A stretch of 64,000 bases of DNA from positions 186,001 through 250,000 of the forward strand of contig JANLFU010000003.1 in NCBI GenBank assembly GCA_024653215.1. The letters are read 5' to 3'. Position 1 is the first letter of the stretch. Every line of letters begins with the position of its first letter. Positions 1 to 60,432 of the stretch are shown in pieces. The DNA is from Candidatus Saccharicenans sp. (lineage in GTDB: Bacteria; Acidobacteriota; Aminicenantia; Aminicenantales; Saccharicenantaceae). The notes beneath the pieces were generated by a model that saw nothing but the letters and a program-made list of their open reading frames with translations, had not been told where the DNA came from and did not search any database. The position numbers were made by a program, and so were the translations under genes.

Positions 1-384
<384 letters not shown>

Positions 385-9392: not shown

Positions 9393-9416
9393 CAAAAGTA
9401 AACCATGGAGGTCAGA

Positions 9417-10100
9417 ATGGCCGAAGGCCGTATAAATAAGAAAGAAATAATCCAGGCCGAATACAAGAGACTGATGCTCCTGGCCGCGGAAAGGGTTATC
9501 ATCCGCCGCGGTTTCAGGTCGGCCACCATGGATGAGATTGCCAGGGAAGCCAATTTTTCCAAGGCTACCCTGTACAAGTACTTCCATAACAAGGGACAGA
9601 TTCTCCTGGAAATCATCCTGCAGTACATCGACGAGATAAAGGAGCGCCTGAGAGAAATTCAGCAATCCGACCGCTCCCCGGACGAGAAACTGAAACAGAT
9701 GATCCTGTCGGTGCTGGACATCCAGACCAAAAAAGAAAACATCTCCAGGCTGTTTGTCCAGGACAAGAGCCTGCGTGATTTCATCCACCGGATTTTTGCC
9801 CCCAGCCGAAAGGAAGATAACCGGGAATTCCAGCAAGCCTTGAAACTCTTCAAGGCCAGGCGGGAAGAGATATCTCAATCGGGTTGCCTGGTGCTGACCG
9901 AAGGCATGGACCGGGGCCTGTTCGTGGCCACCGACCCCGAAAAGCTTCTCCGCTACGTCTGGGCCCTGATCGAAGGGCTGATCCATACCCGGTACTGGCA
10001 GGAAGAAAAAGTTTCTCCGGAGGACGAGACCGAACAGATCTTCGAATTCTTGATGACAGGCATTGCCGGAAAGTCTGTTCAGAAAGGAGCGACCGAATGA
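9417..10100 (+). CDS. TetR/AcrR-family transcriptional repressor of efflux operon
   Basis: A 227-residue TetR-family regulator. The N-terminal helix-turn-helix is clear (RGFRSATMDEIAREANFSKA, then TLYKYFHNKGQIL). The C-terminal part is a helical ligand/dimerisation domain with no family-specific motif that I can name. The ATG at 9417 is chosen because GGAGG at 9407-9411 sits 5 bases upstream; the ATG at 9405 would include that site in the coding part. The stop overlaps the ATG of the TolC gene (ATGA), so the regulator is the first gene of the efflux operon and probably represses it through the palindrome at 9367-9392. The inducer is unknown, likely a pump substrate. Confidence 0.9.
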   Translation: MAEGRINKKEIIQAEYKRLMLLAAERVIIRRGFRSATMDEIAREANFSKATLYKYFHNKGQILLEIILQYIDEIKERLREIQQSDRSPDEKLKQMILSVLDIQTKKENISRLFVQDKSLRDFIHRIFAPSRKEDNREFQQALKLFKARREEISQSGCLVLTEGMDRGLFVATDPEKLLRYVWALIEGLIHTRYWQEEKVSPEDETEQIFEFLMTGIAGKSVQKGATE

Positions 10101-11458
10101 AAGCCGCAAGATTCTGGTTTTTGGCCTTAATTGTCTTTCTGGCCGCGGGCTGGACTGCCCTGCCGGCCCAGGAAAAAACCGTTAACAAACTGGAACTGAC
10201 TCTTGATGATTGCCTCAAGCTGGCCCTGGAACAAAATCCCTTTTACCTGGCCAGCCTGGAGAAAGAGAGCGAAGCCAGGGCCCAGGTCCACCGGGCAGTA
10301 GCCGGGTTCCTGCCAACCCTCAATGCCCAGGGCAGCGATATCCTGGATAAGAAGGTCTTCACCGTGGAAATTCCGCCCATGGTCCCGGGGGGACAGCCGC
10401 AGAGAGTCAAGTTTGATTTCACCCGGACCTACCAGATGAGCCTCAATTTTTCCTTTCCCCTCTTTACCGGGGGGCGGCTGACCTCGGCCTACCGCCAGGC
10501 CAACTATAACTACCAGGCCACCCAGGAGTCCATCAAGCAGTCCCGCCAGGAAACCATCCTGAGCGTCAAGCAGGCTTTCTACGGGTACCTTCTGGCCCGC
10601 AGGTTCCTGGAGGTGGCCGAGGAATCGGTCAGCCTGGCCGAAAAGCACCTGAAAAATGTCCGGAACCTGGCCGAGGTGGGTATGGCCACCAAGTTTGACC
10701 TGCTCCGGGCCGAGGTTCAGCTGGCCAACCTGCAGCCCCAGCTGATAAGGGCCAGGAACGGGTTGCAGATGTCGGAGCTGGCCCTCAAGAACCTCCTGGG
10801 TTTGGACCTTGACCAGCCGGTCGAAATAAAAGGCGAGCTTTCTTTTCAGGAAGTCCAGATAGACCCGGAGGAATCCATTCAGAAGGCCTTGCTCAACCGG
10901 CCTGAAATTCAGCAACTCGGTTATCAGCGGCGGATGGCCGGGGAGATGGTCAAGCTGGCCCGGGCGGCCGACCTGCCGACGGTGGCCATAGGCGGGCAGA
11001 TCAATTACTGGTCCAACTATCTGAATTTCAAGAAAAACAACTGGGAAAATTATTACACCATCAGCCTGGCCCTGAACATTCCCATTTTTAATGGCTTTGC
11101 GGCCCAGGCCCAGGCGGCCCAGGCCAAAGCCCTGGCCCGGCAGCTCGATTATTCGATGAAAGGATTGACCGAGGCTGTCCGGCTGGAAGTGGAACAGGCG
11201 ATTCTGAATTACCAGCAGGCCCGGGAAGCCCTGCTGTCGCAGCAGAAAAACGTGGAACAGGCGGCCGAGGCCGTGCGCCTGGCCGAGCTTAACTTTGCCG
11301 AGGGACTGGCCACCACCCTGGACGTGACCACGGCCCAGGTGGCCCTGAGCCAGGCCAGGACCAATTACGCCCAGGCCCAGTATGAATGCCTGATGGCTCT
11401 GGCCCAGCTGGAGAAGGCTACCGGCGAATCGGTATCCGGATATAAGTCCGACAGGTGA
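10097..11458 (+). CDS. TolC-family outer-membrane efflux channel
   Basis: A 453-residue outer-membrane efflux protein. A signal peptide is at about 1-24 (FWFLALIVFLAAGWTALPAQ). The mature part has the duplicated TolC architecture: LTLDDCLKLALEQNP at the start of the first repeat, long coiled-coil helices rich in A, Q, E and L, and the second-repeat ending AEGLATTLDVTTAQVALSQA. The ATG at 10097 overlaps the TetR stop and has AAGGAGC about 8 bases upstream. It forms the outer channel of the tripartite pump with the adaptor and RND transporter encoded next. Confidence 0.92.
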   Translation: MKAARFWFLALIVFLAAGWTALPAQEKTVNKLELTLDDCLKLALEQNPFYLASLEKESEARAQVHRAVAGFLPTLNAQGSDILDKKVFTVEIPPMVPGGQPQRVKFDFTRTYQMSLNFSFPLFTGGRLTSAYRQANYNYQATQESIKQSRQETILSVKQAFYGYLLARRFLEVAEESVSLAEKHLKNVRNLAEVGMATKFDLLRAEVQLANLQPQLIRARNGLQMSELALKNLLGLDLDQPVEIKGELSFQEVQIDPEESIQKALLNRPEIQQLGYQRRMAGEMVKLARAADLPTVAIGGQINYWSNYLNFKKNNWENYYTISLALNIPIFNGFAAQAQAAQAKALARQLDYSMKGLTEAVRLEVEQAILNYQQAREALLSQQKNVEQAAEAVRLAELNFAEGLATTLDVTTAQVALSQARTNYAQAQYECLMALAQLEKATGESVSGYKSDR

Positions 11459-11492
11459 GAATAAATCACTGGCAGTCGAATAGGAGGACAAC

Positions 11493-12602
11493 ATGTTCTT
11501 GAGAGGAAAAGCCAAATACGCGGTTTATGGAGCAATTTTCCTTTTTCTGGTTTCCTGTCAGAAACCGGTGGAGAAAAAGGTAGCGGACGACGGCCTCAAG
11601 CCGGCACCCGTAAAAGTTTACAAGGTCAAAAAACAGAGAATATCGGAAAAGTTAACCTATACAGCCACCCTGGAAGCCTGGAAAAGGCAGGCCATAACCC
11701 CCGACATTTCAGGGAAGGTGGCGAGGATATACGTCAACGAAGGCGAAAGGGTTAAACGGGGGCAGTTGCTGGCCGAGCTTGACACCCGGTCCATAAGGTT
11801 GCAACTGGAACAGGCTGAAGCAGCCCTGGCCATGGCCCGGGCCAATTTTGAGGACGCCAGCCGTAACCTGGAAAGGATGGAGAGGCTTTACAAGGAAAAG
11901 GCCGTTTCCGACCAGCAGTACGAGAAAGTCCGGCTGGCCTTCGAAGCGGCCAAGGCCCAGAGAGAGCAGGCCGAAGCCGCGGTCAACCTGGCCAGGCACG
12001 CCCTGGACGTTTCCATCATGCGGGCTCCGTTTGATGGAGTGATAGCTGCCAAGAACCTGGAGGAGGGTGACATCATCAACCCGATGATGGGCGGATTTTC
12101 CGCCACCTCGGCCGTGCTGACCCTGGTTGATTATTCCAGGATCAAGGTTCGCTTCGATGTCTCCCCGGTTGATGCCTTAAAAATGGCCAGGGGTCAGAAA
12201 GTTTTCCTGGAAAGCTTTGTCCTGCCCGGGCAGCAGTTTGAAGGCCAGGTGACGGTGGTCAACACCAGCGCCGACCCCCAGACCAAGAAATTCCGGGTGG
12301 AAGCGGTGGTCAACAATCCTGAGCTGGCCCTCAAGCCCGGGACTTTCGGGCGGGTAATTCTCGAGGTCAGCACCAGGGAAAATTCGCTGGTCGTGCCCCA
12401 GAAAGCCCTCCTGGAAAATTCTTATGTTCTGGTGGTTGAAGGCAATAAGGCGGTGAGGAAGAACGTCACCACCGGCCTGAAGAATACGGATTTGATTGAG
12501 ATTACCTCGGGTCTGAACGAGGGGGACCTGGTGATTGTCGAAGGAAACTTCGGGCTCATGGACGGCAGCCCGGTTGAGGTGGAAGGCGAGGTGGTAAGAT
12601 GA
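11493..12602 (+). CDS. RND efflux periplasmic adaptor (membrane fusion protein), lipoprotein
   Basis: A 369-residue HlyD/AcrA-type adaptor joining the inner-membrane pump to the TolC channel. The N-terminus is a lipoprotein signal ending in LFLVSCQK (lipobox LVSC). The lipoyl half-motifs are visible (ISGKVARIYVNEGERVKRGQ at about 69-88 and IMRAPFDGVIAAKNLEEGD about 100 residues later), with an alpha-hairpin between them (LEQAEAALAMARANF and AKAQREQAEAAVNLAR). A beta-barrel domain and membrane-proximal domain follow. AGGAGG lies 8 bases before the ATG. The last codon overlaps the ATG of the RND gene (ATGA). Confidence 0.93.
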   Translation: MFLRGKAKYAVYGAIFLFLVSCQKPVEKKVADDGLKPAPVKVYKVKKQRISEKLTYTATLEAWKRQAITPDISGKVARIYVNEGERVKRGQLLAELDTRSIRLQLEQAEAALAMARANFEDASRNLERMERLYKEKAVSDQQYEKVRLAFEAAKAQREQAEAAVNLARHALDVSIMRAPFDGVIAAKNLEEGDIINPMMGGFSATSAVLTLVDYSRIKVRFDVSPVDALKMARGQKVFLESFVLPGQQFEGQVTVVNTSADPQTKKFRVEAVVNNPELALKPGTFGRVILEVSTRENSLVVPQKALLENSYVLVVEGNKAVRKNVTTGLKNTDLIEITSGLNEGDLVIVEGNFGLMDGSPVEVEGEVVR

Positions 12603-15600
12603 AGCTGCCTGAATTTTCGGTCAGAAGAAAAGTTACGGCCTCGATGATCGCCATGATCCTGGTGGTCATCGGGCTGATTGCCTTTTCCCGCCTGGGGCTG
12701 GATTTCTTTCCGGACCTGGAATACCCGACCGTTTCGGTTATTACTACCTACCGCGGTGCTTCCTCCGAGGATATTGAAAAAACCATCACCGAGCCCCTGG
12801 AACAGGTGGTCAGCTCGGTGAGCGGAGTCAAGAAGGTTACCTCCCAGAGTTCTGAGGGAGTCTCGGTCCTGATGGTGGAGTTTGAATGGGGCACCAACCT
12901 GGATTTTGCCGCTCAGGATATCCGCGACCAGATTGGCCTTTACCGCAATTTTCTGCCGACCAACGCTTCCAACCCGCTGGTGGTCAAGTTCAACCTGTCC
13001 CAGTTTCCCGTGGTCTTTTACGGTATCACCGCCAATTCCGGCTATACCACCTATGACCTGAAAAAGATGATAGAAGACGAGGTCAAGCCCAGGTTGGAAC
13101 GGCTGGACGGAGTGGCTTCGGCCGCGGTCTTTTCCACGGACGAAAGAGAAATCAGGGTTGAGGTCGATAAGAATGCCCTGATTTCCTACAACCTCTCCCT
13201 GGACCGGGTGCTGATGGCCCTGGCTGCCGAAAATGTTAACGCCCCGGCCGGGGACGTGGTGGAGCGGCATGAAGACCTGATTGTCAGAACCCTCGGAGAA
13301 TTCCGGAGCGTGGAAGATGTCAGGAACGTGGTCGTGGGTCTTTCCCAGCGCGGTGAGCCAATTTATGTAAGAGATATAGCCGAGGTCAAGGATACATTCA
13401 AGGAAACCCGAAACGTGGCCCGGGTGCAGGAGCAGAAGGGAGTTTACCTGGTAGTGAACAAGCGCTCGGGAGCCAACACTGCCCTGGTTGGTAATGCCGT
13501 TAAAAAAGAAATCAGCAAGATTCAGGCCTCCCTTCCGGGGAATGTCGCGTTTCACATGGCCATGGACCAGGCGGAGATGATCAACATGGTGGCCAGCCGG
13601 ACCTCAAACAACGCCGTGGTTGGAGCCTTCCTGGCCATTGCCCTGATCTTCCTGTTTTTGAGGAACTGGCGGCCGACCATGATTATCGCCATTGCCATTC
13701 CCCTATCTGTTATCACCACGTTCGTGGCCCTCTACGCTGCCGGTTACACCCTGAACCTGATGACCCTGGGCGGGCTGGCCCTTGGTGTCGGCATGCTCGT
13801 GGATAATGCCATCGTCGTCATAGAAAATACCTTCCGGCACATAGAAGAGGGTAAGCACGTGGAAGAGGCTGCGGTCATCGGCGCCAGCGAGGTGGGCATG
13901 GCCATCACCGCCTCCACCCTGACCACCATCATCGTCTTTCTGCCAGTGGTCTTTGCCGGCGGCATTACCGGTAAGCTTACCCAGCCCCTGGCCCTGACCA
14001 TTGTTTTCTCCCTGGTCTCTTCGCTGTTCGTGGCCCTGACCCTGGTTCCGTTGTTTTCCTCGTTGCTGTTCAAGTCCAGGAAGAAGAAAAAGAGTGATGA
14101 AGAGGAATGCGTGGTCAAGGAGCCCCATTTTGCCGCGGCCAGAGCCTTTTACCGCAGACTGCTTACAGGCGCTTTAAGGAAGAGAAAGACCGTTCTGACC
14201 GCGACCGCTGCCCTGTTTGTGGTCTCCCTTGTCGCGGCTGTTTTTCTCGGGACGGAATTCATGCCCCAGTCCGACCGCAATTTCCTGATGGTCCGGGTCA
14301 AGCTTCCGGTTGGCACTTCTTTAGAAGAAACTAACCGGGTGGTCAGCCAGATAGAAAGGTTGTTCAGCCAGCAGCCCGAGGTCACCCTGGTCTCAGCCCA
14401 GGCTGGTTCGCGGGCTGAAGAAGACCCGTCAGACATGGCCAGCGGCATGGGCATTACCGGGACCCACGAGGGGCTGCTGATGATCAGGCTGGTAGACAGG
14501 TCGGAGAGAAAATATACCGATATGGAGATTCTGGAGAGAGTCAGAAAGATGCTGCCGCGGCTTGAGAATTTTAAGTTCGAGCAGATCAACATGGAGGCGG
14601 CCATGATGGGCGGAGCGGCCGCCCCGGTGGAGATAAAGCTGTTCGGGAAAGACCTGGAAACGCTGAGAGAAATTGGAGACACCATAGTCAAGAGAATAAG
14701 CGACGTGGAAGGACTGCGTGACCTGACCCACAGCCTGGCCCAGGGCAAGCCGGAATACCAGTTCTCACTCGACCGGGAAAGGGCGGCCAGGCTGGGACTG
14801 GCCGTGGCCCAGGTTTCCAGCACCATTCAAACCGCGACCCAGGGAACCGTGGTCAGCCGCTACCGCGACGGTTCGGACGAGGTCAACATCAGGGTCATAC
14901 TGGCCAAGCAGTACCGCGATACGCTGGAGGAAATCAGGAAGACCCCGTTGATGTCCGCGGCGGGAAAAATGATTTTCCTGGAACAGATTGCCGACTGGAA
15001 ACGCGGCGAGGGCCCGATCCAGATAACCAGGGAAAACCAGATGCGAAAGATTTCGATAACAGCCAATATCGCCGGCCGGGACCTGGGAACCATCATGCGC
15101 GATATCCGCGGCCGCCTGGGTGATTTTGAAAAGCAATTGCCTCCAGGGTATTTCCTGGAGTATGGCGGGGCCTACGAACAGATGATTGATGCCTTTAAGG
15201 TTCTGGCTGCAGCCCTGGCCCTGGCCGTGCTCCTGGTCTACATGGTCATGGCTTCTCAATTCGAGAACTTTCTCCATCCGTTTGTCATCATGTTCACCAT
15301 TCCCCTGGCCATAATTGGCGTCATTTTCGGCCTGTTTGTATCCGGAAAGCCGGTCAGCCTGCCGGCGCTGATAGGTGTTATCATCCTGGCCGGAATTGCC
15401 GTCAATAACGGCATCGTCATGATCGATTACATCAACCAGCTCATCAGGAGAGGACTGGATAAAAGGGAGGCCATTATCAGGGGGGCGGTCACCAGGTTAA
15501 GACCGGTCCTGCTGACGGCCCTGACCACCATCCTGGGCATGTTGCCGATGGCCGTGGCCGGAGGTTCGGGTGCCGAATTCCGTTCACCCATGGCCGTGGC

Positions 15601-15727
15601 CGTGGTCGGAGGACTGACCGCCACCACCCTGCTGACCCTGTTCATCATTCCTATTGTTTACAGCATTTTCAACCGGATATCCTTTAAGGACTACGTGCCT
15701 CAAGCTGAAGAATTGCCCTGTAAATAA
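12599..15727 (+). CDS. RND-family efflux transporter permease (AcrB/MdtB/SwrC type)
   Basis: A 1042-residue inner-membrane proton-driven multidrug transporter. The N-terminal helix leads to FFPDLEYPTVSVITTYRGAS (porter domain start), with large periplasmic loops after TM1 and TM7 and twelve membrane segments in the standard layout. In TM4 the proton-relay motif reads GMLVDNAIVVIEN, with Asp-Asn in place of the Asp-Asp of AcrB; this is also seen in SwrC/YerP-type pumps, so I do not read it as inactivation. A Met-rich stretch occurs (INMEAAMMGGAAA), but no CusA-type metal pathway is evident. Substrates are probably hydrophobic drugs or detergents. Confidence 0.94.
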   Translation: MKLPEFSVRRKVTASMIAMILVVIGLIAFSRLGLDFFPDLEYPTVSVITTYRGASSEDIEKTITEPLEQVVSSVSGVKKVTSQSSEGVSVLMVEFEWGTNLDFAAQDIRDQIGLYRNFLPTNASNPLVVKFNLSQFPVVFYGITANSGYTTYDLKKMIEDEVKPRLERLDGVASAAVFSTDEREIRVEVDKNALISYNLSLDRVLMALAAENVNAPAGDVVERHEDLIVRTLGEFRSVEDVRNVVVGLSQRGEPIYVRDIAEVKDTFKETRNVARVQEQKGVYLVVNKRSGANTALVGNAVKKEISKIQASLPGNVAFHMAMDQAEMINMVASRTSNNAVVGAFLAIALIFLFLRNWRPTMIIAIAIPLSVITTFVALYAAGYTLNLMTLGGLALGVGMLVDNAIVVIENTFRHIEEGKHVEEAAVIGASEVGMAITASTLTTIIVFLPVVFAGGITGKLTQPLALTIVFSLVSSLFVALTLVPLFSSLLFKSRKKKKSDEEECVVKEPHFAAARAFYRRLLTGALRKRKTVLTATAALFVVSLVAAVFLGTEFMPQSDRNFLMVRVKLPVGTSLEETNRVVSQIERLFSQQPEVTLVSAQAGSRAEEDPSDMASGMGITGTHEGLLMIRLVDRSERKYTDMEILERVRKMLPRLENFKFEQINMEAAMMGGAAAPVEIKLFGKDLETLREIGDTIVKRISDVEGLRDLTHSLAQGKPEYQFSLDRERAARLGLAVAQVSSTIQTATQGTVVSRYRDGSDEVNIRVILAKQYRDTLEEIRKTPLMSAAGKMIFLEQIADWKRGEGPIQITRENQMRKISITANIAGRDLGTIMRDIRGRLGDFEKQLPPGYFLEYGGAYEQMIDAFKVLAAALALAVLLVYMVMASQFENFLHPFVIMFTIPLAIIGVIFGLFVSGKPVSLPALIGVIILAGIAVNNGIVMIDYINQLIRRGLDKREAIIRGAVTRLRPVLLTALTTILGMLPMAVAGGSGAEFRSPMAVAVVGGLTATTLLTLFIIPIVYSIFNRISFKDYVPQAEELPCK

Positions 15728-18191: not shown

Positions 18192-19343
18192 CTATCTTGG
18201 TGTTTTGAATTTTAGGAAACCTCCAATGTTCCCGTAGTGTTCCAGCCGGGTGGGCGGGTTAATCTGAGTCAGCGGGACATTCTTGTTAAGGGCAATCTCT
18301 ATGGCTTCATCCACCACGTCGGCCACGGGCTCGGTCTTGACCTTGCAGGTGGGACAGGCCTCCTCATTAAGAAACAGCCCGTGACAGCCTGGGCAGACCC
18401 GGCCGGGCTTGGAAAAGTTGTGGGTTATGAGCAGGTGCCTGATTTCGTGTGAATTCAGCTTTCTTAGAGTATCGGCCAGTCCGGCCACCGCCCGTCCGCC
18501 CCGCTCCAGCTCGGCCACGAAGGCCTTGACCAGGCCAGCTTCCTCTTCTCTCTTGAGTCGATCTTCCAGGTCCAGGCATTCCTGAAGCACCCGGGAGGCT
18601 TCCGTCCCCGGCCTGGCCTTGATCCGGCCTTTGAGTCGGTCTTTAACATAGGTGTGAAACAGGGGTTCAAGCTGGGGGTAGAACTGGTCGTCACAGCCCA
18701 GGAACAGCCAGTCGAAATGATTCTGTTTCAGGATTTCAAATGTTCTTTGGGCGGCTTTCTTGAAGTGCTCCAGCAGCAGGGCATCTATATGACGTTCGAT
18801 CCTTTTGGATTCGTAACCTTCAAATCCGCCTTTCTTGACCTTCTTGGGAACATCGCTGGTCAGGCTATCCAGCAGCCTGATCTCACCCATACGAATTTCG
18901 TACCAGAAAGCCTCCCGTCGGTTTACCAGGAAGGCGCAAAGTTTCTTGAATTTTTCCAGGATGGCCGACAGGGGCCTGGTGTAGAAATCAAAGTCCTGGA
19001 TGAGCCTGTTTCTCGGTCCGTGGGGCAGTTCCAGCTCCTGCCAGAGGTTCCTGGCTGAACAGCAAAAAATGGCCAGCCCGGGCGCTTTCCAGGAGTTCAG
19101 CCGGTTGGTACAGAACTGGGAGATCTTTTCCAGGTCCTCCAGCAGAGATTTCTTGACTTCACGGGACAGGTCTCTTGTTTCCAGTGTCAGCCTGGCCTGA
19201 TTCAGGAGCCCCTTGTAGGCGGCATTGATCGCCTTGAGGGGCTGCCGGCTCTTGTCGGTGTCGAGGTAAAAACTGGTGGCCTGGTAAGGATGGGTTTTCA
19301 CCTGGGCCAGGGTCTCGGCCTGGGCAGGGCTGGTAAATTTCAT
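18192..19343 (-). CDS. Bacterial eRF1/aRF1-like protein (baeRF family)
   Basis: A 383-residue cytosolic protein with the layout of bacterial homologs of the archaeo-eukaryotic release factor. It has an N-terminal domain (ATSFYLDTDKSRQPLKAINA), a middle eRF1 domain-2-like part (RIERHIDALLLEHFKKAAQR at about 195-215, then DWLFLGCDD), and a C-terminal L7Ae-like part carrying a zinc ribbon (VCPGCHGLFLNEEACPTCK) and a hydrophobic end with VADVVDEAIEIALNKN. No GGQ motif is seen, so it is not a standard peptide-release factor. The ATG at 19343 has AAAGGAGG 4-5 bases upstream and is preferred to a longer in-frame start. Related families are thought to act on stalled ribosomes; the role here is not known. 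Confidence 0.75.
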   Translation of the reverse strand: MKFTSPAQAETLAQVKTHPYQATSFYLDTDKSRQPLKAINAAYKGLLNQARLTLETRDLSREVKKSLLEDLEKISQFCTNRLNSWKAPGLAIFCCSARNLWQELELPHGPRNRLIQDFDFYTRPLSAILEKFKKLCAFLVNRREAFWYEIRMGEIRLLDSLTSDVPKKVKKGGFEGYESKRIERHIDALLLEHFKKAAQRTFEILKQNHFDWLFLGCDDQFYPQLEPLFHTYVKDRLKGRIKARPGTEASRVLQECLDLEDRLKREEEAGLVKAFVAELERGGRAVAGLADTLRKLNSHEIRHLLITHNFSKPGRVCPGCHGLFLNEEACPTCKVKTEPVADVVDEAIEIALNKNVPLTQINPPTRLEHYGNIGGFLKFKTPR

Positions 19344-19668
19344 TTGACCTCCTTTCAGAAGGTTAGAAGAGAAAAAAAATGGAGAAATATAAAAACCCAC
19401 GCCGGATTGAAAAATTTTGGTTCCTGCTAACGGCTCTGATAAAAGCCACTGATTAAAAATTAATCTTCCCGCCAGGCTTTGTCAAGGAAAATCTGGCCCT
19501 TCCCCGGAAACCTGGCCGGCCGGAGCATCGAGACAGACCGATTAAGGTCTCAGTAAATGACAGGAAACAGGCAGCGGCTTTCCCGGGATTGTTGACCGGC
19601 TCCTTTAGCCGGCGGCCCCCAGACTTTCCTGCCAGGGATTCCGGGGGATTGAATTGGCCGGGTAGAAC

Positions 19669-22333: not shown

Positions 22334-22420
22334 GCGGAAGTGGCGGAATTGGCAGACGCGTAAGCCTCAGGAGTTTATGGCCGAAAGGCTGTGTGGGTTC
22401 GAGTCCCACCTTCCGCACCA
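22334..22420 (+). tRNA. tRNA-Leu (anticodon CAG)
   Basis: An 87-base class II tRNA. The acceptor arms GCGGAAG (22334-22340) and CTTCCGC (22410-22416) pair fully; discriminator A and an encoded CCA follow. The anticodon loop CTCAGGA gives CAG, reading CUG, the commonest Leu codon in this window. The long variable arm and the T-loop GGTTCGAGTCC are present. Confidence 0.95.
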
Positions 22421-22432
22421 CCTTTTTTATTT

Positions 22433-23806
22433 ATGCCTCATAAAAAACGCGTCCTTCTCATCAATCCCTGGATATATGATTTCACCGCATGTGATTTCTG
22501 GCTGAGACCACTGGGGTTGCTTTACCTGGCCTCTATCATCAGGGAGCAAACCAACCTTGACATAGATTTCCTGGACCTCCTGGACTGCAGCCGTGTCGGA
22601 AGTGGATACGGTTTTCGGAGCAGGGTAAAACCCGACGGCCGGGCCTCCTTTTACAAGGAAGAAGTCCAGAAGCCAGACCTGTTCCGTCATATTCCCCGAA
22701 GGTTTTCCAGGTACGGCTGGCCCCTGGCCCAGGCCGAGGATTTCCTGAAAAGGCTGCCGTCACCCGAAGCAGTGCTCCTGACCTGCACCATGACCTACTG
22801 GTACCCCGGGGTGCAGACGGCCATCGAGCTGGTCAGAAAGGTCTTCGGCCGAGTCCCGGTGATACTCGGAGGCATTTATCCCACCCTCTGCCCGGAACAT
22901 GCCCGCAGCCAGTCGGGAGCCGAGGTGGTGGTGACCGGGACCGGTGAGAACCGGGTACTGCCCCTGCTGGAAGAAACCTGCGGCCCGGAGGTGCTCAAGC
23001 CAGGTTCGGATGAGGTCAGATTTTCCGGGCTTGATTCGCTGCCGTTTCCGGCCTATGACCTCTATCCGGATAGGTCCACAGTCTGCCTGCTTACTTCCAG
23101 GGGCTGTCCGCTTAATTGCAGTTACTGCGCCAGTCGCCTTCTGCATCCAGGTTTTGAGCAAAGGCAGCCGGAGCGGGTGGTCTCCGAGATCCTGCATTTT
23201 CGCCGCCTGGGAGCCTTGAATATTGCCTTTTATGACGATGCCCTGCTGCTCAACCGGGAGCGGCACCTGTCGAAAATCCTGGAGGCGGTGGCCAGGCTCC
23301 AGCCCGGCCTTAATTTTCACACCCCCAATGGTCTTTCTCCCCGGGCAATCGACCTGAAGCTGGCCGCCCTCATGAAAAAGGCGGGATTTTCTTCGATTTT
23401 TCTCAGCCTGGAAAATTCCGACCCGGACTGGCTCCGACAGACCGGGCCAAAGGTGGATGTTTCCGATCTGGAAAGAGCCATAGACTGCTTGGAAAAAGCC
23501 GGCTTCCATCGAGGAGAAATTTCTGTTTACATCCTGGTCGGTCAGCCTTTGCAGACCCGTCACCAGGTGCTGGACAGTCTGAAGCTAATCAGGGAGCTCG
23601 GGACCCGGCCTCGCCTGGCCTATTACTCTCCTGTTCCCGGAACCAGAGACTGGAAACTGCTGCTGGAAGCCGGGAGGCTCAAACCCAATTCTGACCCCCT
23701 TCTTCACAACAAGCTGGTTTTTCCCTATTTCTGGGGAAGCCTTACTCCCGAGGAGCTGGAAGAAATCAAGCACAATAGCCGCCGAAGCCGGCCCGGGTTG
23801 ATTTAA
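22433..23806 (+). CDS. B12-binding domain radical SAM protein
   Basis: A 457-residue radical SAM enzyme with an N-terminal cobalamin-binding-like domain. The first 140 residues look like the B12-binding fold (KRVLLINPWIYDF; WLRPLGLLYLASIIRE; later VPVILGGIYPTLCPEHA). The radical SAM cluster motif is SRGCPLNCSYCASR (Cys-x3-Cys-x2-Cys) near residue 220-233, followed by AFYDDALLLNR and LENSDPDWLRQTG, typical of the BchE/HpnJ-like class. It may do a methyl transfer or ring closure; substrate unknown. The ATG at 22433 is only 12 bases past the tRNA CCA and has no Shine-Dalgarno; a longer in-frame start would lie inside the tRNA and is rejected. Confidence 0.85.
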   Translation: MPHKKRVLLINPWIYDFTACDFWLRPLGLLYLASIIREQTNLDIDFLDLLDCSRVGSGYGFRSRVKPDGRASFYKEEVQKPDLFRHIPRRFSRYGWPLAQAEDFLKRLPSPEAVLLTCTMTYWYPGVQTAIELVRKVFGRVPVILGGIYPTLCPEHARSQSGAEVVVTGTGENRVLPLLEETCGPEVLKPGSDEVRFSGLDSLPFPAYDLYPDRSTVCLLTSRGCPLNCSYCASRLLHPGFEQRQPERVVSEILHFRRLGALNIAFYDDALLLNRERHLSKILEAVARLQPGLNFHTPNGLSPRAIDLKLAALMKKAGFSSIFLSLENSDPDWLRQTGPKVDVSDLERAIDCLEKAGFHRGEISVYILVGQPLQTRHQVLDSLKLIRELGTRPRLAYYSPVPGTRDWKLLLEAGRLKPNSDPLLHNKLVFPYFWGSLTPEELEEIKHNSRRSRPGLI

Positions 23807-29238: not shown

Positions 29239-29455
29239 GCAAGCCTCCTTCCGGAGTTTACTCAAACTGGTTGAGGTGTCTCCGATTCCAGGTAAAAAGG
29301 TACTCTATGCCCGGGAAAAAGTCAAGGAAAGACTGCTCTGGTTGGCCCGGCCGGGCAGTTGTCAGGGCCGTCTTTTTCCACTAAAATACCGGTTCAGCCT
29401 GCCACTTTTCTGGCTGAATGCGGCCGGTCATCCGGATAATTGAGCGGTGGAAATA

Positions 29456-31249
29456 ATGCAGGAAAGAATACGCAATTTCTCGATCATTGCCCACGTCGAC
29501 CACGGCAAGAGCACCCTGGCCGACCGATTTATCGAGCTGACCGGGGCCCTGTCGCCCCGCGAGCTCAAGGAACAGGTCCTGGACACCATGGACCTGGAAC
29601 GGGAAAGGGGCATCACCATCAAGGCCCAGACGGCCAGGCTGACCTACCGCAGCCGGTCGGGCGAAGAATACATCCTGAACCTGATTGATACGCCAGGGCA
29701 CGTGGATTTCTCCTACGAGGTATCACGCAGCCTGGCCGCCTGCGAGGGGGCGGTCCTGGTCATAGACGCTTCCCAGGGAGTAGAGGCCCAGACCCTGGCC
29801 AACGCCTACCTGGCCATCCAGAATGACCTGCTGATCATCCCCGTCATTAACAAGATTGACCTGCCCCAGGCTGACGTGGAAATGACCCTGGAACAGCTGG
29901 AACACATCGTCGGGCTGAAGCGGGAAGAGGCAGTCCTGGTCTCGGCCAAGAAAGGAACCGGGGTGGAAGAAGTGCTCGAAGCCGTGGTCCGGAGAATTCC
30001 CCCGCCGCGGGGGAGTGCCGCCTCGCCACTCAAGGCCCTGCTCTTTGACTCCTGGTTTGACCCCTACCGCGGGGTGGTGGTCCTGGTCAGGGTGGTTGAT
30101 GGAACCATTAAGACCGGGGACCGGATTGTATTGATGGCCACCGGCGCCGAGTACCAGGTGGAAGAAATCGGTTACCTGACCCCAAAGCCGGTCCGGGTGG
30201 AGTCGCTTTCTACCGGCGAGGTCGGATACCTGATTGCCGGGATAAAAAACCTGGCCCACGCCCGGATTGGCGAGACCATAACCCACAAGCTGAGGCCGGC
30301 GGAGCAGCCGCTACCCGGTTTCAAGGAAGCCAAGCCCATGGTTTTCTGCGGGCTCTACCCGGCCGGGGAAAGCAGCATCGAGGACCTGCGCGATGCCCTG
30401 GAAAAGCTCAGGCTCAACGATGCTTCCTTCCACTTTGAACCGGAAAATTCCCCGGCCCTGGGCTTCGGTTTCCGGGCCGGCTTCCTCGGCCTGCTCCACC
30501 GCGAGATTATACAGGAGAGGCTGGAGCGAGAGTTCAACCTGAGCCTGATCACCACCGCTCCCAGCGTCAGTTACCGGGTAGTAACCACCAGGGGCGAGGT
30601 GCTGGAAGTTCACAACCCCTCGGAACTGCCCGAGCCCCAGTACCTGGACCGGATTGAAGAACCGATTATCGAGGCCCTGATCCTGACTCCCGACCGCTAC
30701 CTGGGCAACCTGCTGCAGCTCCTGGATGAACGGCGCGGCGTGCAGAAAAAGATGGAGTACATCTCCACCAGCCGGGTGTTGCTGGATTACCTGGTCCCGC
30801 TGAACGAAGTCGTCTTTGATTTTTACAACCAGCTCAAGTCGCTCTCCCAGGGCTATGCTTCCATGGATTACGAGCTGGCCGGTTATAAGGAAGCCCCGCT
30901 GGTCAAGCTGGACATCCTGGTCAACTATGAAGAGGTCGACGCCCTGTCGGTTATAGTCCACAAGGACAAGGCCTACCGCGTCGGCCGGTCACTGGTGGAG
31001 AGGCTCCGCCAGGCCATACCGCGGCAGCAGTTCGAGGTGGTGCTTCAGGCGGCCATCGGCAAGAGGGTCATCGCCCGGGAGACTGTCAAGCCTTTCCGGA
31101 AGGATGTCCTGGCCAAGCTCTACGGCGGCGATTACACCCGGAAGATGAAAGTCCTGGAAAAGCAGAAGGAAGGCAAGAAGAGGATGAAAAGGGTCGGCCG
31201 GGTGGACATTCCCCAGGAAGCCTTTCTGGCCATTCTGGAAGTCAAGTAG
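29456..31249 (+). CDS. lepA: Elongation factor 4 (LepA)
   Basis: A 597-residue ribosome back-translocase GTPase. G1 [10 protein letters not shown]2 region [12 protein letters not shown]3 DTPGHVDF, G4 NKIDLP and G5 SAKKG are all present in the first 180 residues. The EF-4-specific C-terminal domain is complete ([20 protein letters not shown], then [14 protein letters not shown]). The ATG at 29456 is chosen by comparison with the family start (M-x(3-5)-IRNFSIIAH); the in-frame GTG at 29447 would add only three residues. Confidence 0.96.
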
Positions 31250-58069: not shown

Positions 58070-60022
58070 TCAGAGTCCAGTATGAAAACCAAAGCCTATT
58101 TCAATCCTCCGGGAGGAAACAGGATATCCGGGTTCGGTGAAATAAGCTCTGTTGAAAAGATTTTCCACCTTTAAGAATATTGAGCCGGACCTGAAGAATT
58201 TTTCAAAAGATAGATTGGCAGTTACATAAGCCGGAACATTGACCATTTCATTGCTTATGACAATCTCAGCCTTGGAAGCGCCGATCAGCCATACAGCCAG
58301 AGCAATGTTTTCTGCCCTGAAGTAGTTCAGAAGCAAGCTAACCTGGGAAGTGGGGATCAGATCCAGCTTTCTATTTTCGGTCAGATTCCTGGCTTTAAGA
58401 TAAGTATATTGAAGCTGAATATTAAAATCGCCGATTGATTTATCGGTCTCAAGCTCCAGACCCCGAATCCTGGCCTTGCCCACATTAACATATAGTCTGG
58501 TGCCGTCAGGCTGGCGGATAACGCTGATAAAATCGCGGTAATTTGAGGTGAATAAGGCCAGGCAGGAGTCAACCCAACCATGATAGGCGGTTCCAAACTC
58601 AAAGGTACGGCCAACTTCATCTTTAAGGTCAGGGTTGCCGCTAGTTGAACTATAAAGGGAACGCATCGACGGAAAGCGCGATTTTTGGGCATAGGAAAGA
58701 TGAAACTCAATAGGGGGCTGTGGCCTGAATTTTAAGCCAATTATCGGGTTCAGAGAGGTTCGATGGCCTCCCGCCTGTTTTTGCAGGTAATCAAGGCTTA
58801 GACCCCCGAGGAGATGCCATCTGGGCGTCAATTTCCATTCGTCTTCCAGGCCGAACGAATAAGTATTGTGTTTATAGTATTCCCAGGGTGAAGTCTCAGA
58901 GGCCTGTTGCTTGACCTTATCCAAACGACCGTTGAGGCTGAATCGCAGCTCATGATTTGTCCTGGGATTAACGGTTGCAAGGAAAAAGGCACCAGCTGAG
59001 TAGTTCTTATATATTGATTCCCAGTTTAGTATGCTGTAGGTAGCGTCTGTGTAGGCATCGAGGACATTGTAGTAGTTGATATAATATGTTCTGATTTTAA
59101 GAGTTCCGGACTTAAATAGAGGGAAGGTGCCGCCCAGGCCAAGAATGAATCTCTGCCAATCCTTAAATCTCCAATATCGGGGTGAATAATAGGCAGTGGC
59201 CACCGGCACACCATAAGCGGAATCGTAAAAAGAAGTCTGTAAGAGGATTTCGCTCCTTTGCCCGGGGAAAAAGTAAACCTTTCCACTGAAATAATTGTTC
59301 CGGTAATCAGTATTTGGAAAGAGCTGAGTTGCTCCAGAATCTTTGAATTTATAGCCCTCTGTTTCCTCGTGGGAGGTAGCCAGCTTGAGGCTGAAGTGCT
59401 GACTCACGTAGGTTCCGCTTCCTGAAAAGCTGAAGCTTGAGGTTGGGCCCAGTCTGGTACGCAGCTCCAGGCTGTTTTCCTGCGGCCTTCGGGTCAGAAC
59501 CTCCACGATTCCCCCCATGGTGTTGGCCCCGTATAAGACCGAGGAAGGGCCTTTGGTTACCTGGGCATATTCAACCTCGAGGCTGGGGATGGTTCTTAAA
59601 TTGTACAGATTAAAATAAGGTTCATAAATGGGAATTCCATCCAGCAACAGGGTAGATTTGTCATTGTCCAGGCCCCTGATTTTTACATGCGCTTCGGCTT
59701 TGGAACCGGTGGTAACATAGGTTCCAGGGGCGAAAGAAAGCACCTCGGCAATATTCTTTGATTTAAAAAGCTCAAGAACATCAGGACGAATGACGAAAAC
59801 CGAAGCCAAAGGTTTTTGTTCAGGGGAAGGAGCGGTTACCAGGATTCCTTCGGTTCTGACCCTGGCCGGCTTTTCTTCCTCTTTTGTCTGTCCCTTTTTC
59901 TGACTGGTAGATTGTTCCTGGCCGCCTTCAGTCGTGGCTGGCAAAAAAGAAACTGAAAAAAAGAAAAATAAGAAAAGAAAAACAAGAGAGATTAAAAAAT
60001 GGGATCTGGATTGGTAGGGCAT
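58070..60022 (-). CDS. TonB-dependent outer-membrane receptor (BtuB/siderophore-type)
   Basis: A 650-residue TonB-dependent receptor without the carboxypeptidase-like domain. Signal peptide about 8-30 (FLISLVFLFLFFFFSVSFLP), a charged linker, then the plug (about 60-175): SVFVIRPDVLELFKSKNIAE, VLSFAPGTYVTTGSKAEAHV, KIRGLDNDKSTLLLDGIPIY and VLYGANTMGGIVEVLTRRPQ. The barrel ends with RRIEIGFGFHTGL. The substrate might be a metal chelate or cofactor. ATG at 60022 follows AAAGGAGA; an in-frame ATG at 60109 is rejected, as it would place the structured RNA inside the coding part. Its leader holds a strong candidate riboswitch. Confidence 0.87.
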   Translation of the reverse strand: MPYQSRSHFLISLVFLFLFFFFSVSFLPATTEGGQEQSTSQKKGQTKEEEKPARVRTEGILVTAPSPEQKPLASVFVIRPDVLELFKSKNIAEVLSFAPGTYVTTGSKAEAHVKIRGLDNDKSTLLLDGIPIYEPYFNLYNLRTIPSLEVEYAQVTKGPSSVLYGANTMGGIVEVLTRRPQENSLELRTRLGPTSSFSFSGSGTYVSQHFSLKLATSHEETEGYKFKDSGATQLFPNTDYRNNYFSGKVYFFPGQRSEILLQTSFYDSAYGVPVATAYYSPRYWRFKDWQRFILGLGGTFPLFKSGTLKIRTYYINYYNVLDAYTDATYSILNWESIYKNYSAGAFFLATVNPRTNHELRFSLNGRLDKVKQQASETSPWEYYKHNTYSFGLEDEWKLTPRWHLLGGLSLDYLQKQAGGHRTSLNPIIGLKFRPQPPIEFHLSYAQKSRFPSMRSLYSSTSGNPDLKDEVGRTFEFGTAYHGWVDSCLALFTSNYRDFISVIRQPDGTRLYVNVGKARIRGLELETDKSIGDFNIQLQYTYLKARNLTENRKLDLIPTSQVSLLLNYFRAENIALAVWLIGASKAEIVISNEMVNVPAYVTANLSFEKFFRSGSIFLKVENLFNRAYFTEPGYPVSSRRIEIGFGFHTGL

Positions 60023-60033
60023 AACACTTCTCC

Positions 60034-60130
60034 TTTCCAAAATGGGAGGCAAAGCCGTTTCCAGCTTTACCCTATCGGCCCAGTGGCTTGGCTGAAAAGC
60101 TGTAGCCATCAGGACTCGGAGTCATGGAAA
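60034..60130 (-). promoter_or_regulatory. Structured leader RNA of the TonB receptor, Moco/Tuco riboswitch-like
   Basis: Read on the minus strand. The outer stem pairs TTTCCA (complement of 60125-60130) with TGGAAA (complement of 60034-60039), and the latter overlaps the Shine-Dalgarno AAAGGAG. Inside are hairpin TGGCT/AGCCA (60104-60108 with 60089-60093) and a 10-bp hairpin closed by a GAAA tetraloop (60062-60071 with 60048-60057), followed by GCCTCCC. The stretches CTCCGAG, GCCACTGGGCCGATAGG, CTGGAAACGG and GCCTCCC match what I remember of the Moco RNA motif (Rfam RF01055). The pairing is seen in the sequence; family and ligand are inferred and no model was run. Cobalamin riboswitch is a weaker alternative. 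A closed stem would block translation. Confidence 0.6.
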
Positions 60131-60432
60131 TTATATTTTCTTTTCACCAAGAGTCAATAAAAAAAATTTAGCAGCCTTGATTACTGTGATGGCTTCTCAC
60201 TTGCATGGGGCCTGGTGGACCTAATTTCAGTATCGTAACAATCCGGAGGAACTTATTAATTGGTCAACCATTCTGGCAGGAAAAAGGCATGCCGATAAGA
60301 GGTAATCGGACCTGGCCTGATAATAGCCCATATATATTCAAACCGATCAAAGCACCGTTTGTTCATAAGAGGCCGGGTCTGAACTTAAACTCGGGAAATT
60401 GACCCTCGGAGTCCCACTGCCGATGAGGTCAA

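What the first reader, a model, noticed from the sequence alone, without database searches (positions are those of the whole stretch)
18192..19343. Bacterial eRF1-like (baeRF) protein with zinc ribbon and no GGQ
The protein has the layout of archaeo-eukaryotic release factors, with a Cys4 ribbon in the C-terminal domain, but lacks the GGQ peptide-release motif. Such bacterial proteins are suspected to act on stalled ribosomes or in stress. Here it stands alone, without a ribosome-hibernation factor beside it.
Basis: partly seen in the sequence, partly recalled or inferred. Interest (0 to 1): 0.5.

Follow-up and report, generated by a model that had tools for sequence, protein, structure and literature searches.

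The report
Bacterial release-factor look-alike, remodelled catalytic loop
This gene makes a bacterial cousin of the archaeal and eukaryotic translation-termination factor that lacks the amino acid used to free finished proteins yet keeps that loop as its most conserved part, so it probably sits in idle or stuck ribosomes rather than cutting proteins loose.

Summary
It is a three-domain baeRF protein: Pfam baeRF_family10 is above cut-off, and a confident AlphaFold model matches the Balon homologue Msmeg1130 over its whole length, then eRF1/aRF1. The C-domain is L7Ae/Pelota-like with a Cys4 ribbon. NIKS and GGQ are absent. The genome's one HPF hit is on another contig. The orthologue is in 39 of 39 good-quality sampled genomes of its order (Candidatus Aminicenantes, Acidobacteriota).

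New here: the PTC loop is not decayed. GGQ is replaced by GG[F/W]xG[Y], of one length in 68 of 70 subfamily rows, and is the protein's most conserved 14-residue window (rank 1 of 370). Other family-10 proteins sampled in the phylum mostly keep the catalytic Gln. A published analysis says Gln-less baeRFs have poorly conserved loops of free length; this subfamily is an exception.

Best explanation (inferred): a non-hydrolytic, Balon-like A-site/PTC-binding factor for idle or stalled ribosomes. Release by another residue, or Pelota-like rescue, are not excluded. New variant of a known kind; no experiment done.

The parts
18192..19343 (-). baeRF_family10 protein gene, 383 aa, ATG at 19343, stop ends at 18192
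19348..19354 (-). ribosome-binding-site-like AAGGAGG just upstream of the ATG
   Evidence: read from the sequence
18954..19343 (-). N-terminal domain, residues 1-130 (eRF1 N-domain fold; no NIKS)
   Evidence: eRF1 N-domain 2lgt Z 12.1 over 2-133; NIKS scan
18549..18953 (-). middle RNase-H-fold domain, residues about 131-265 (eRF1 domain 2 / baeRF_family10)
   Evidence: Pfam 121-256; eRF1 middle domain 2hst Z 12.6 over 129-260
18789..18830 (-). remodelled catalytic loop and start of the next helix, residues 172-185, GGFEGYESKRIERH, in place of GGQ
   Evidence: (most conserved window, rank 1 of 370)
18192..18548 (-). C-terminal L7Ae/Pelota-like domain, residues about 266-383, and stop
   Evidence: Pelota C-terminal domain 5eo3 Z 12.8 (266-383), L7Ae 5fj4 Z 10.3
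18345..18395 (-). Cys4 ribbon inserted in the C-terminal domain, C317-C333
   Evidence: aligned with a Cys-free segment of Msmeg1130

Best explanation
It is a bacterial aRF1-related protein (baeRF family 10 by Pfam) that works like Balon: it enters the ribosomal A site, with the N-domain at the decoding centre, the middle-domain loop at the peptidyl-transferase centre, and the L7Ae-like C-domain towards the factor-binding side. There it holds idle or stalled ribosomes without releasing the nascent peptide. The loop GG[F/W]xG[Y]ExKRxxRH would be a PTC- or tRNA-end-contacting element whose job is docking, not water activation, since the glutamine is gone. Shown by computation: predicted fold, family, absence of NIKS and GGQ, conservation and fixed length of the loop, presence across the sampled order. 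Inferred: A-site binding, lack of hydrolysis, a role in dormancy or stress.
For: Full-length structural match of the model to Msmeg1130 (Foldseek E 4.3e-24, TM 0.76; VIA Z 31.3, rmsd 4.0 over 368 residues) and to Balon itself (Z 25.8). Profile search finds Msmeg1130 over the full length at 4.9e-19. The three NCBIfam Balon-type models match P0001 at 3e-6 to 3e-4 and 18 to 20 of the 20 members of A4 at E 0.001 or better. NIKS is absent in 111 of 111 rows other than aRF1. Catalytic Gln is absent by either anchoring of the loop. R184 at the start of the next helix is kept in 70 of 70 subfamily rows; PMC6514570 reads such arginines as LSU-rRNA contacts. RF1-like, RF2-like and a third, short RF-1-domain frame (GGQ present) are in the genome, SmpB too, so release and rescue do not obviously need this protein.
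Against: No HPF or recognised stress gene beside it, unlike many Balon genes. Scores to the curated Balon models are far below their cut-offs (27, 26 and 20 bits against 330, 480 and 320). The C-domain carries a Cys4 ribbon where Msmeg1130 has none. The GG pair is retained, which a pure blocker would not obviously need. By PMC6514570, Gln-less baeRF loops are poorly conserved; the strict conservation here could mean activity. The better full-length sequence match is aRF1 (4af1, 4.7e-23). The Balon-like domain arrangement is a prediction (pTM 0.79), and the loop block 171-180 is its least certain inner part (mean pLDDT 64).
Confidence: 0.6

Rival explanations
1. Pelota/Dom34-like rescue factor: it enters the A site of stalled ribosomes without cutting the peptide and promotes splitting or recycling, possibly with EF-Tu or another GTPase.
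For: Pelota is also a three-domain relative without the glutamine (PMC6514570); Pelota structures match middle and C domains (Z about 10 to 14). NFACT-R (RqcH) was not found in the 91.8% complete own genome, so one other rescue route may be missing.
Against: The whole-length match to Balon and eRF1 is much stronger than to Pelota. P0001 does not match the NCBIfam pelota model and only 1 of 20 members of A4 does. SmpB is present in the own genome.
Confidence: 0.2
2. A peptidyl-tRNA hydrolase that uses another residue of the GG[F/W]xG[Y]E loop (for example the conserved Tyr177 or Glu178, or the backbone) in place of glutamine.
For: The loop is the most conserved segment of the protein (rank 1 of 370) and has one length in 68 of 70 rows, the pattern that PMC6514570 associates with active families; GG is retained in most rows (G172 62 of 70, G173 68 of 70).
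Against: The families that PMC6514570 takes to be active all carry Gln. Y177 is T, N, E or F in 16 of 70 rows and E178 varies in 16 of 70. Four rows of the subfamily have decayed motifs. The genome already has RF1-like, RF2-like and a third RF-1-domain frame.
Confidence: 0.12
3. A degenerate release factor drifting towards loss, or a protein that moonlights away from the ribosome.
For: Four of 70 rows have broken loop motifs, and 8 of 66 GxGY-labelled rows depart from Cys4 (6 with one His, 2 with His and Asp).
Against: Orthologue in 39 of 39 good-quality sampled genomes, conserved gene neighbourhood, and loop conservation above the protein's mean (3.73 against 2.71 bits per column).
Confidence: 0.05

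Closest known systems
Msmeg1130 / Balon / Rv2629 ribosome hibernation factors (PDB 8v9j, 8v9l, 8v9k, 8rd8, 8rdv, 8rdw; PMC10901736)
   Same: Three aeRF1-type domains over the full length, no NIKS, no GGQ in the loop; best structural match (Msmeg1130 Z 31.3, rmsd 4.0 over 368 residues).
   Different: Only 12-15% identity; far below NCBIfam cut-offs; Cys4 ribbon where Msmeg1130 has a Cys-free segment; a conserved GG-containing loop; no HPF neighbour.
baeRF family 10 (Pfam PF18854; PMC6514570)
   Same: Above the curated cut-off (51.2 bits against 27.1); three domains, zinc ribbon.
   Different: Sampled members outside this subfamily mostly keep the Gln (SQ) in a span of 16 or 20 residues; here no Gln and a span of 19.
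Archaeal release factor aRF1 (PDB 4af1)
   Same: Best sequence-profile match in the PDB (4.7e-23, full length); Cys-bearing insertion at the same site; GG pair aligned.
   Different: No NIKS, no GGQ; three extra residues after GG; in a bacterium that has its own RF1 and RF2.
VLRF1 peptidyl-tRNA hydrolases (acVLRF1 and others; PMC6514570)
   Same: Same superfamily; the GGF/GGW start of the loop resembles GGxSQ.
   Different: VLRF1 keeps the glutamine; P0001 has no acVLRF1 match; 2 of 20 A4 members match it in Pfam and 1 of 20 in NCBIfam.
Pelota/Dom34
   Same: Three-domain relative without the glutamine; C-domain fold match (5eo3 Z 12.8).
   Different: Weak whole-length match; no match of P0001 to the NCBIfam pelota model.

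Membership tests
baeRF family 10 (PF18854) | Score above Pfam's curated cut-off | tested here: met
   51.2 bits against 27.1; 20 of 20 A4 members match at E 0.001 or better
baeRF family 10 (PF18854) | Well-conserved catalytic glutamine in the loop (as stated for the family in PMC6514570) | tested here: not met
   Loop GGFEGYESKRIERH; Gln missing by both anchorings; in the 70 subfamily rows, positions 172-181 hold Q only at the variable position 175, in 4 rows
baeRF clade (bacterial aeRF1-type, three-domain) | N, RNase-H-fold middle and L7Ae/Pelota-like C domains | tested here: met
Balon/Msmeg1130/Rv2629 hibernation factors | NCBIfam equivalog cut-off | tested here: not met
   27, 26.1 and 20.2 bits against 330, 480 and 320
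Balon/Msmeg1130/Rv2629 hibernation factors | Absence of NIKS and of GGQ | tested here: met
Balon/Msmeg1130/Rv2629 hibernation factors | Whole-length Balon fold | tested here: met
   predicted model: Z 31.3 to Msmeg1130, 25.8 to Balon, 20.4 to Rv2629
Balon/Msmeg1130/Rv2629 hibernation factors | HP motif at the decoding centre | tested here: inconclusive
   The text read gives no residue numbers. An H-P in Msmeg1130 aligns with R123-P124 of the query; whether that H-P is the motif is not known
Balon/Msmeg1130/Rv2629 hibernation factors | bL27 trap loop | not testable with these tools
   position not given in the text read; model coordinates not available
Balon/Msmeg1130/Rv2629 hibernation factors | EF-Tu-contacting beta-hairpin in the C-domain | tested here: inconclusive
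   the query has a Cys4 ribbon where the aligned Msmeg1130 segment has no Cys; that this segment is the hairpin is inference
Balon/Msmeg1130/Rv2629 hibernation factors | Binds the A site of hibernating ribosomes | not testable with these tools
   needs biochemistry or cryo-EM
aRF1/eRF1 release factors | GGQ and NIKS motifs; NCBIfam cut-off | tested here: not met
   50.8 bits against 234.7
Pelota/Dom34 | Match to the NCBIfam pelota model | tested here: not met
   not among the matches of P0001 at E 1 or below; 1 of 20 A4 members at 3.1e-5

The most novel reading that the evidence does not exclude
The GG[F/W]xG[Y]E loop is a dedicated peptidyl-transferase-centre element of a factor that is neither eRF1-like (no glutamine) nor Balon-like: a third kind of aeRF1-type activity, either release by a different residue or a specific plug for the PTC or tRNA 3' end, kept across the Aminicenantes order and in at least seven further acidobacterial families.
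Probability: 0.3. Interest if true: 0.7.

Novelty: new variant of a known kind. Interest (0 to 1): 0.45.

Why it matters
In the published picture (PMC6514570) a baeRF either keeps its glutamine and a loop of constrained length (possible enzyme) or lacks it and has a poorly conserved loop (inert blocker). This subfamily breaks that pairing: glutamine absent, loop conserved above everything else. It is a clean test of what the loop of aeRF1-type proteins does apart from hydrolysis. That it serves dormancy in these mostly uncultured bacteria is expectation, not shown here.

Tried and rejected
Plus-strand reading of the coordinates gives stops. A first alignment of 20 loci mixed strands and was discarded; the redo is. 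Defence-system rival: no PADLOC match at E 1 or below. Mobile or phage origin: no relative of P0001 in the plasmid collection (tblastn); in viral contigs 54 stretches matched a pattern and none was confirmed. A second copy or a Balon-model protein in the own genome: PF18854 gives one place, this gene; NF052287 gives none; the other two Balon models were not searched in the genome. RQC link: no NFACT-R hit in the own genome, 91.8% complete. Promoter- and terminator-like sites were no more than shuffles give (1 found, 0.8 expected; 1 found, 3.1 expected). My first wording 'monocistronic' was dropped: upstream the next ORF is divergent in 38 of 53 loci, but on the same strand in 12, the window's included. 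Distribution of the GxGY loop outside Acidobacteriota could not be tested: the one genome-contig scan used patterns from the order and its 52 loci are mostly titled Aminicenantes or Acidobacteria, and the genome search reached only the window's phylum and 14 control genomes.

Papers: PMC6514570, passages and section 7 in full; PMC10901736, passages and sections 9, 10 and 11 in full; all others seen only as search listings. No paper on this loop variant was noticed in the listings; supplements were not read.

Full report
What is there. The coordinates hold a 383-codon gene on the minus strand, with AAGGAGG just before the ATG. The nearest named relatives by this protein are Candidatus Aminicenantes isolate Ch100 (99%) and Candidatus Saccharicenans subterraneus (96%) (records of the own genome may be left out there), so the window is probably from Candidatus Saccharicenans, Acidobacteriota. 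In the own genome (2.60 Mb, 36 contigs, 91.8% complete) the search with the protein and with PF18854 each find one place, this gene.

Family. Pfam baeRF_family10 matches residues 121-256 at 2.1e-13, above its cut-off; eRF1 domains 2 and 3 match below theirs (0.0033 and 0.046). NCBIfam gives aRF1/eRF1 at 1.1e-13 and three Balon-type hibernation models at 3e-6, 4e-6 and 2.8e-4, all below their cut-offs. With a 20-member alignment (A4) the PDB sequence search gives Halobacterium aRF1 4af1 at 4.7e-23 and Msmeg1130 at 4.9e-19, both nearly full length, then several eRF1 at about 1e-14, Rv2629 at 1.1e-8 and Balon at 2.2e-8. All 20 members of A4 match baeRF_family10.

Structure. AlphaFold on the window protein with 47 relatives gave mean pLDDT 92.1 and pTM 0.79; the loop block 171-180 has mean pLDDT 64. 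Foldseek ranks Msmeg1130 first (4.3e-24, TM 0.76 by query), then aRF1 4af1 (3.5e-23, TM 0.51). VIA-align gives Msmeg1130 Z 31.3, rmsd 4.0 over 368 residues; Balon Z 25.8; eRF1 Z 20.6 with rmsd 10.6 (large most likely from domain orientation, inference); Pelota C-domain 5eo3 Z 12.8; L7Ae 5fj4 Z 10.3.

The loop. In aRF1 the loop reads GGQSA. Here it reads GGFEGYESKRIERH (residues 172-185). Among 112 aligned rows (110 acidobacterial homologues, Msmeg1130 and aRF1) a motif classification gave 66 GxGY (G[FWY]x[GA][YNTF]), 32 SQ, 13 other and aRF1 with GGQ. The SQ rows are mostly the 30 loci that scored best against PF18854, so they are biased towards the core of that family. Every row was then scored with two profiles from which the loop had been cut out; 70 rows (66 GxGY and 4 of the 'other': L064, L089, L090, L091) fall on the GxGY side at more than 60 bits. 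The remaining nine 'other' rows do not: L150 and L152 score slightly higher on that side but at 35-37 bits only; L121, L149 and L155 keep a Q in the loop; L154 and Msmeg1130 have no SQ; L144 matches the NCBIfam MSMEG_1130 model at 2.6e-48; L151 was not identified. The profiles were built from the labelled rows, so the split is in-sample. In the 70 rows the span P166-R184 is 19 residues in 68 and 18 in 2; R184 is 70 of 70, G173 68, G176 67, an aromatic at 174 in 68, Y177 54 (T 8, N 5, E 2, F 1). Within 172-181, Q occurs only at the variable position 175, in 4 rows. SQ rows have spans of 20 (19 rows) or 16 (13 rows), aRF1 16. In the 48-row order alignment A2 the window 172-185 is the most conserved of all 370 windows of 14 residues (3.73 against a mean of 2.71 bits per column). 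The Gln is absent by either anchoring: from the GG side GGW-SQ corresponds to GGF-EG, from the helix side WSQKR corresponds to YESKR.

Tree. On 63 rows, with the loop columns left out, the 28 GxGY rows and three decayed ones form one group of 31 (support 86/60, modest), and one change suffices between SQ and GxGY. For it the order's 56 rows were thinned to 19 and 12 of the 54 other acidobacterial rows (near-duplicates or other baeRF types) were left out. aRF1 and Msmeg1130 are long branches with unsure places. A single origin is likely, not proven, and the tree does not show which state is older: the counts do not depend on the root.

Why this is unusual. PMC6514570 (section 7) states that family 10 contains a well-conserved glutamine and could be active, whereas baeRF families without it show poorly conserved loops with no constraint on length. 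This subfamily is inside family 10 by Pfam, lacks the Gln, and has a conserved loop of fixed length.

Zinc ribbon. C317, C320, C330 and C333 are all Cys in 58 of 66 GxGY rows, Cys-His-Cys-Cys in 6 and Cys-His-Cys-Asp in 2. aRF1 has a Cys-bearing insertion at the same site and Msmeg1130 a Cys-free segment. PMC6514570 notes that many baeRF families have a two-strand insert in place of the ribbon.

Surroundings. Downstream lie a convergent metallophosphoesterase and RND efflux genes; upstream an RDD-family gene 325 bp away on the same strand, an outer-membrane protein and, pointing away, a radical-SAM gene and a GWxTD protein. Over 53 loci (the window and 52 relatives, many cut by contig ends) the single-linkage cluster that holds the window's ACR_tran protein recurs in 47 loci (40 with a member of RND size), the GWxTD cluster in 34 and the radical-SAM cluster in 31; only the window's members were annotated by Pfam. 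So the position is broadly inherited in the order. HPF is in 43 of 44 order genomes. In the 35 genomes with a placed copy of both genes (my count), 34 have them on different contigs and one (G024) about 395 kb apart; contig ends could hide an exception. In the own genome HPF lies between genes that look like rpoN and ptsN (names recalled from the sequence). PF00472 finds three places in the own genome; by the matched domain alone they are closest to prfB, prfA, and, weakly, prfB again for the short third frame, which carries GGQ. SmpB is in 42 of 44 order genomes, the own included. NFACT-R was not found in the own genome.

Distribution. PF18854 was found at E 0.001 or better in 109 of 395 sampled Acidobacteriota genomes, and the order's profile in 56 of 297. 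In the class but outside the order 5 of 37 sampled genomes match A4: three (L141-L143) carry GGWSQ, L144 and L151 carry neither motif. GxGY rows outside the order come from seven family codes (f18, f22, f26, f31, f43, f45, f61).

How it probably works. Predicted fold, the kept arginine after the loop, and homology to Msmeg1130 make A-site binding the most likely activity. Absence of Gln and presence of other release factors argue against peptide release. Whether it protects idle ribosomes (Balon-like) or acts on stalled ones (Pelota-like) cannot be told from sequence. Confidence: 0.6 Balon-like, 0.2 Pelota-like, 0.12 alternative hydrolase, 0.05 decay, rest unassigned.

Noticed in passing
window 60014-60133 (-), with ORF 58070-60109 (-): A molybdenum/tungsten (Moco) riboswitch at 72 bits stands at the start of a TonB-dependent receptor gene: possible metal- or cofactor-controlled outer-membrane uptake. 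The listed ATG lies inside the aptamer, so the true start is probably further in.
   Followed up: partly
window 22334-22420 (+) and ORF 22391-23806 (+): tRNA-Leu(CAG) overlaps the first-listed GTG start of the radical-SAM/B12-binding ORF; the real start is probably downstream.
   Followed up: no
window 29447-31249 (+): LepA/EF4 translation factor gene about 10 kb from the baeRF gene; probably coincidence.
   Followed up: no
window 9405-15727 (+): TetR regulator, an ORF not scanned (9884-11458), HlyD and AcrB-type RND efflux genes in a row, convergent with the baeRF gene; the RND cluster recurs in 47 of 53 loci of the order.
   Followed up: partly
L150 (G036), L151 (G311), L152 (G295): Distant baeRF-like proteins in the phylum with GG-rich stretches near the loop (GISGGQG, GVGGGQA, GAGGGAP) that do not align well with the classical loop. 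Whether the GGQ in two of them means anything is unknown.
   Followed up: no
L144 (G114): A class-level relative matches the NCBIfam MSMEG_1130 hibernation model at 2.6e-48, far better than the window protein does, though still below its cut-off.
   Followed up: no
G018: L017 and L037: Two copies of the gene on two contigs of one assembly, 361 of 383 residues identical: perhaps mixed strains in the MAG.
   Followed up: no
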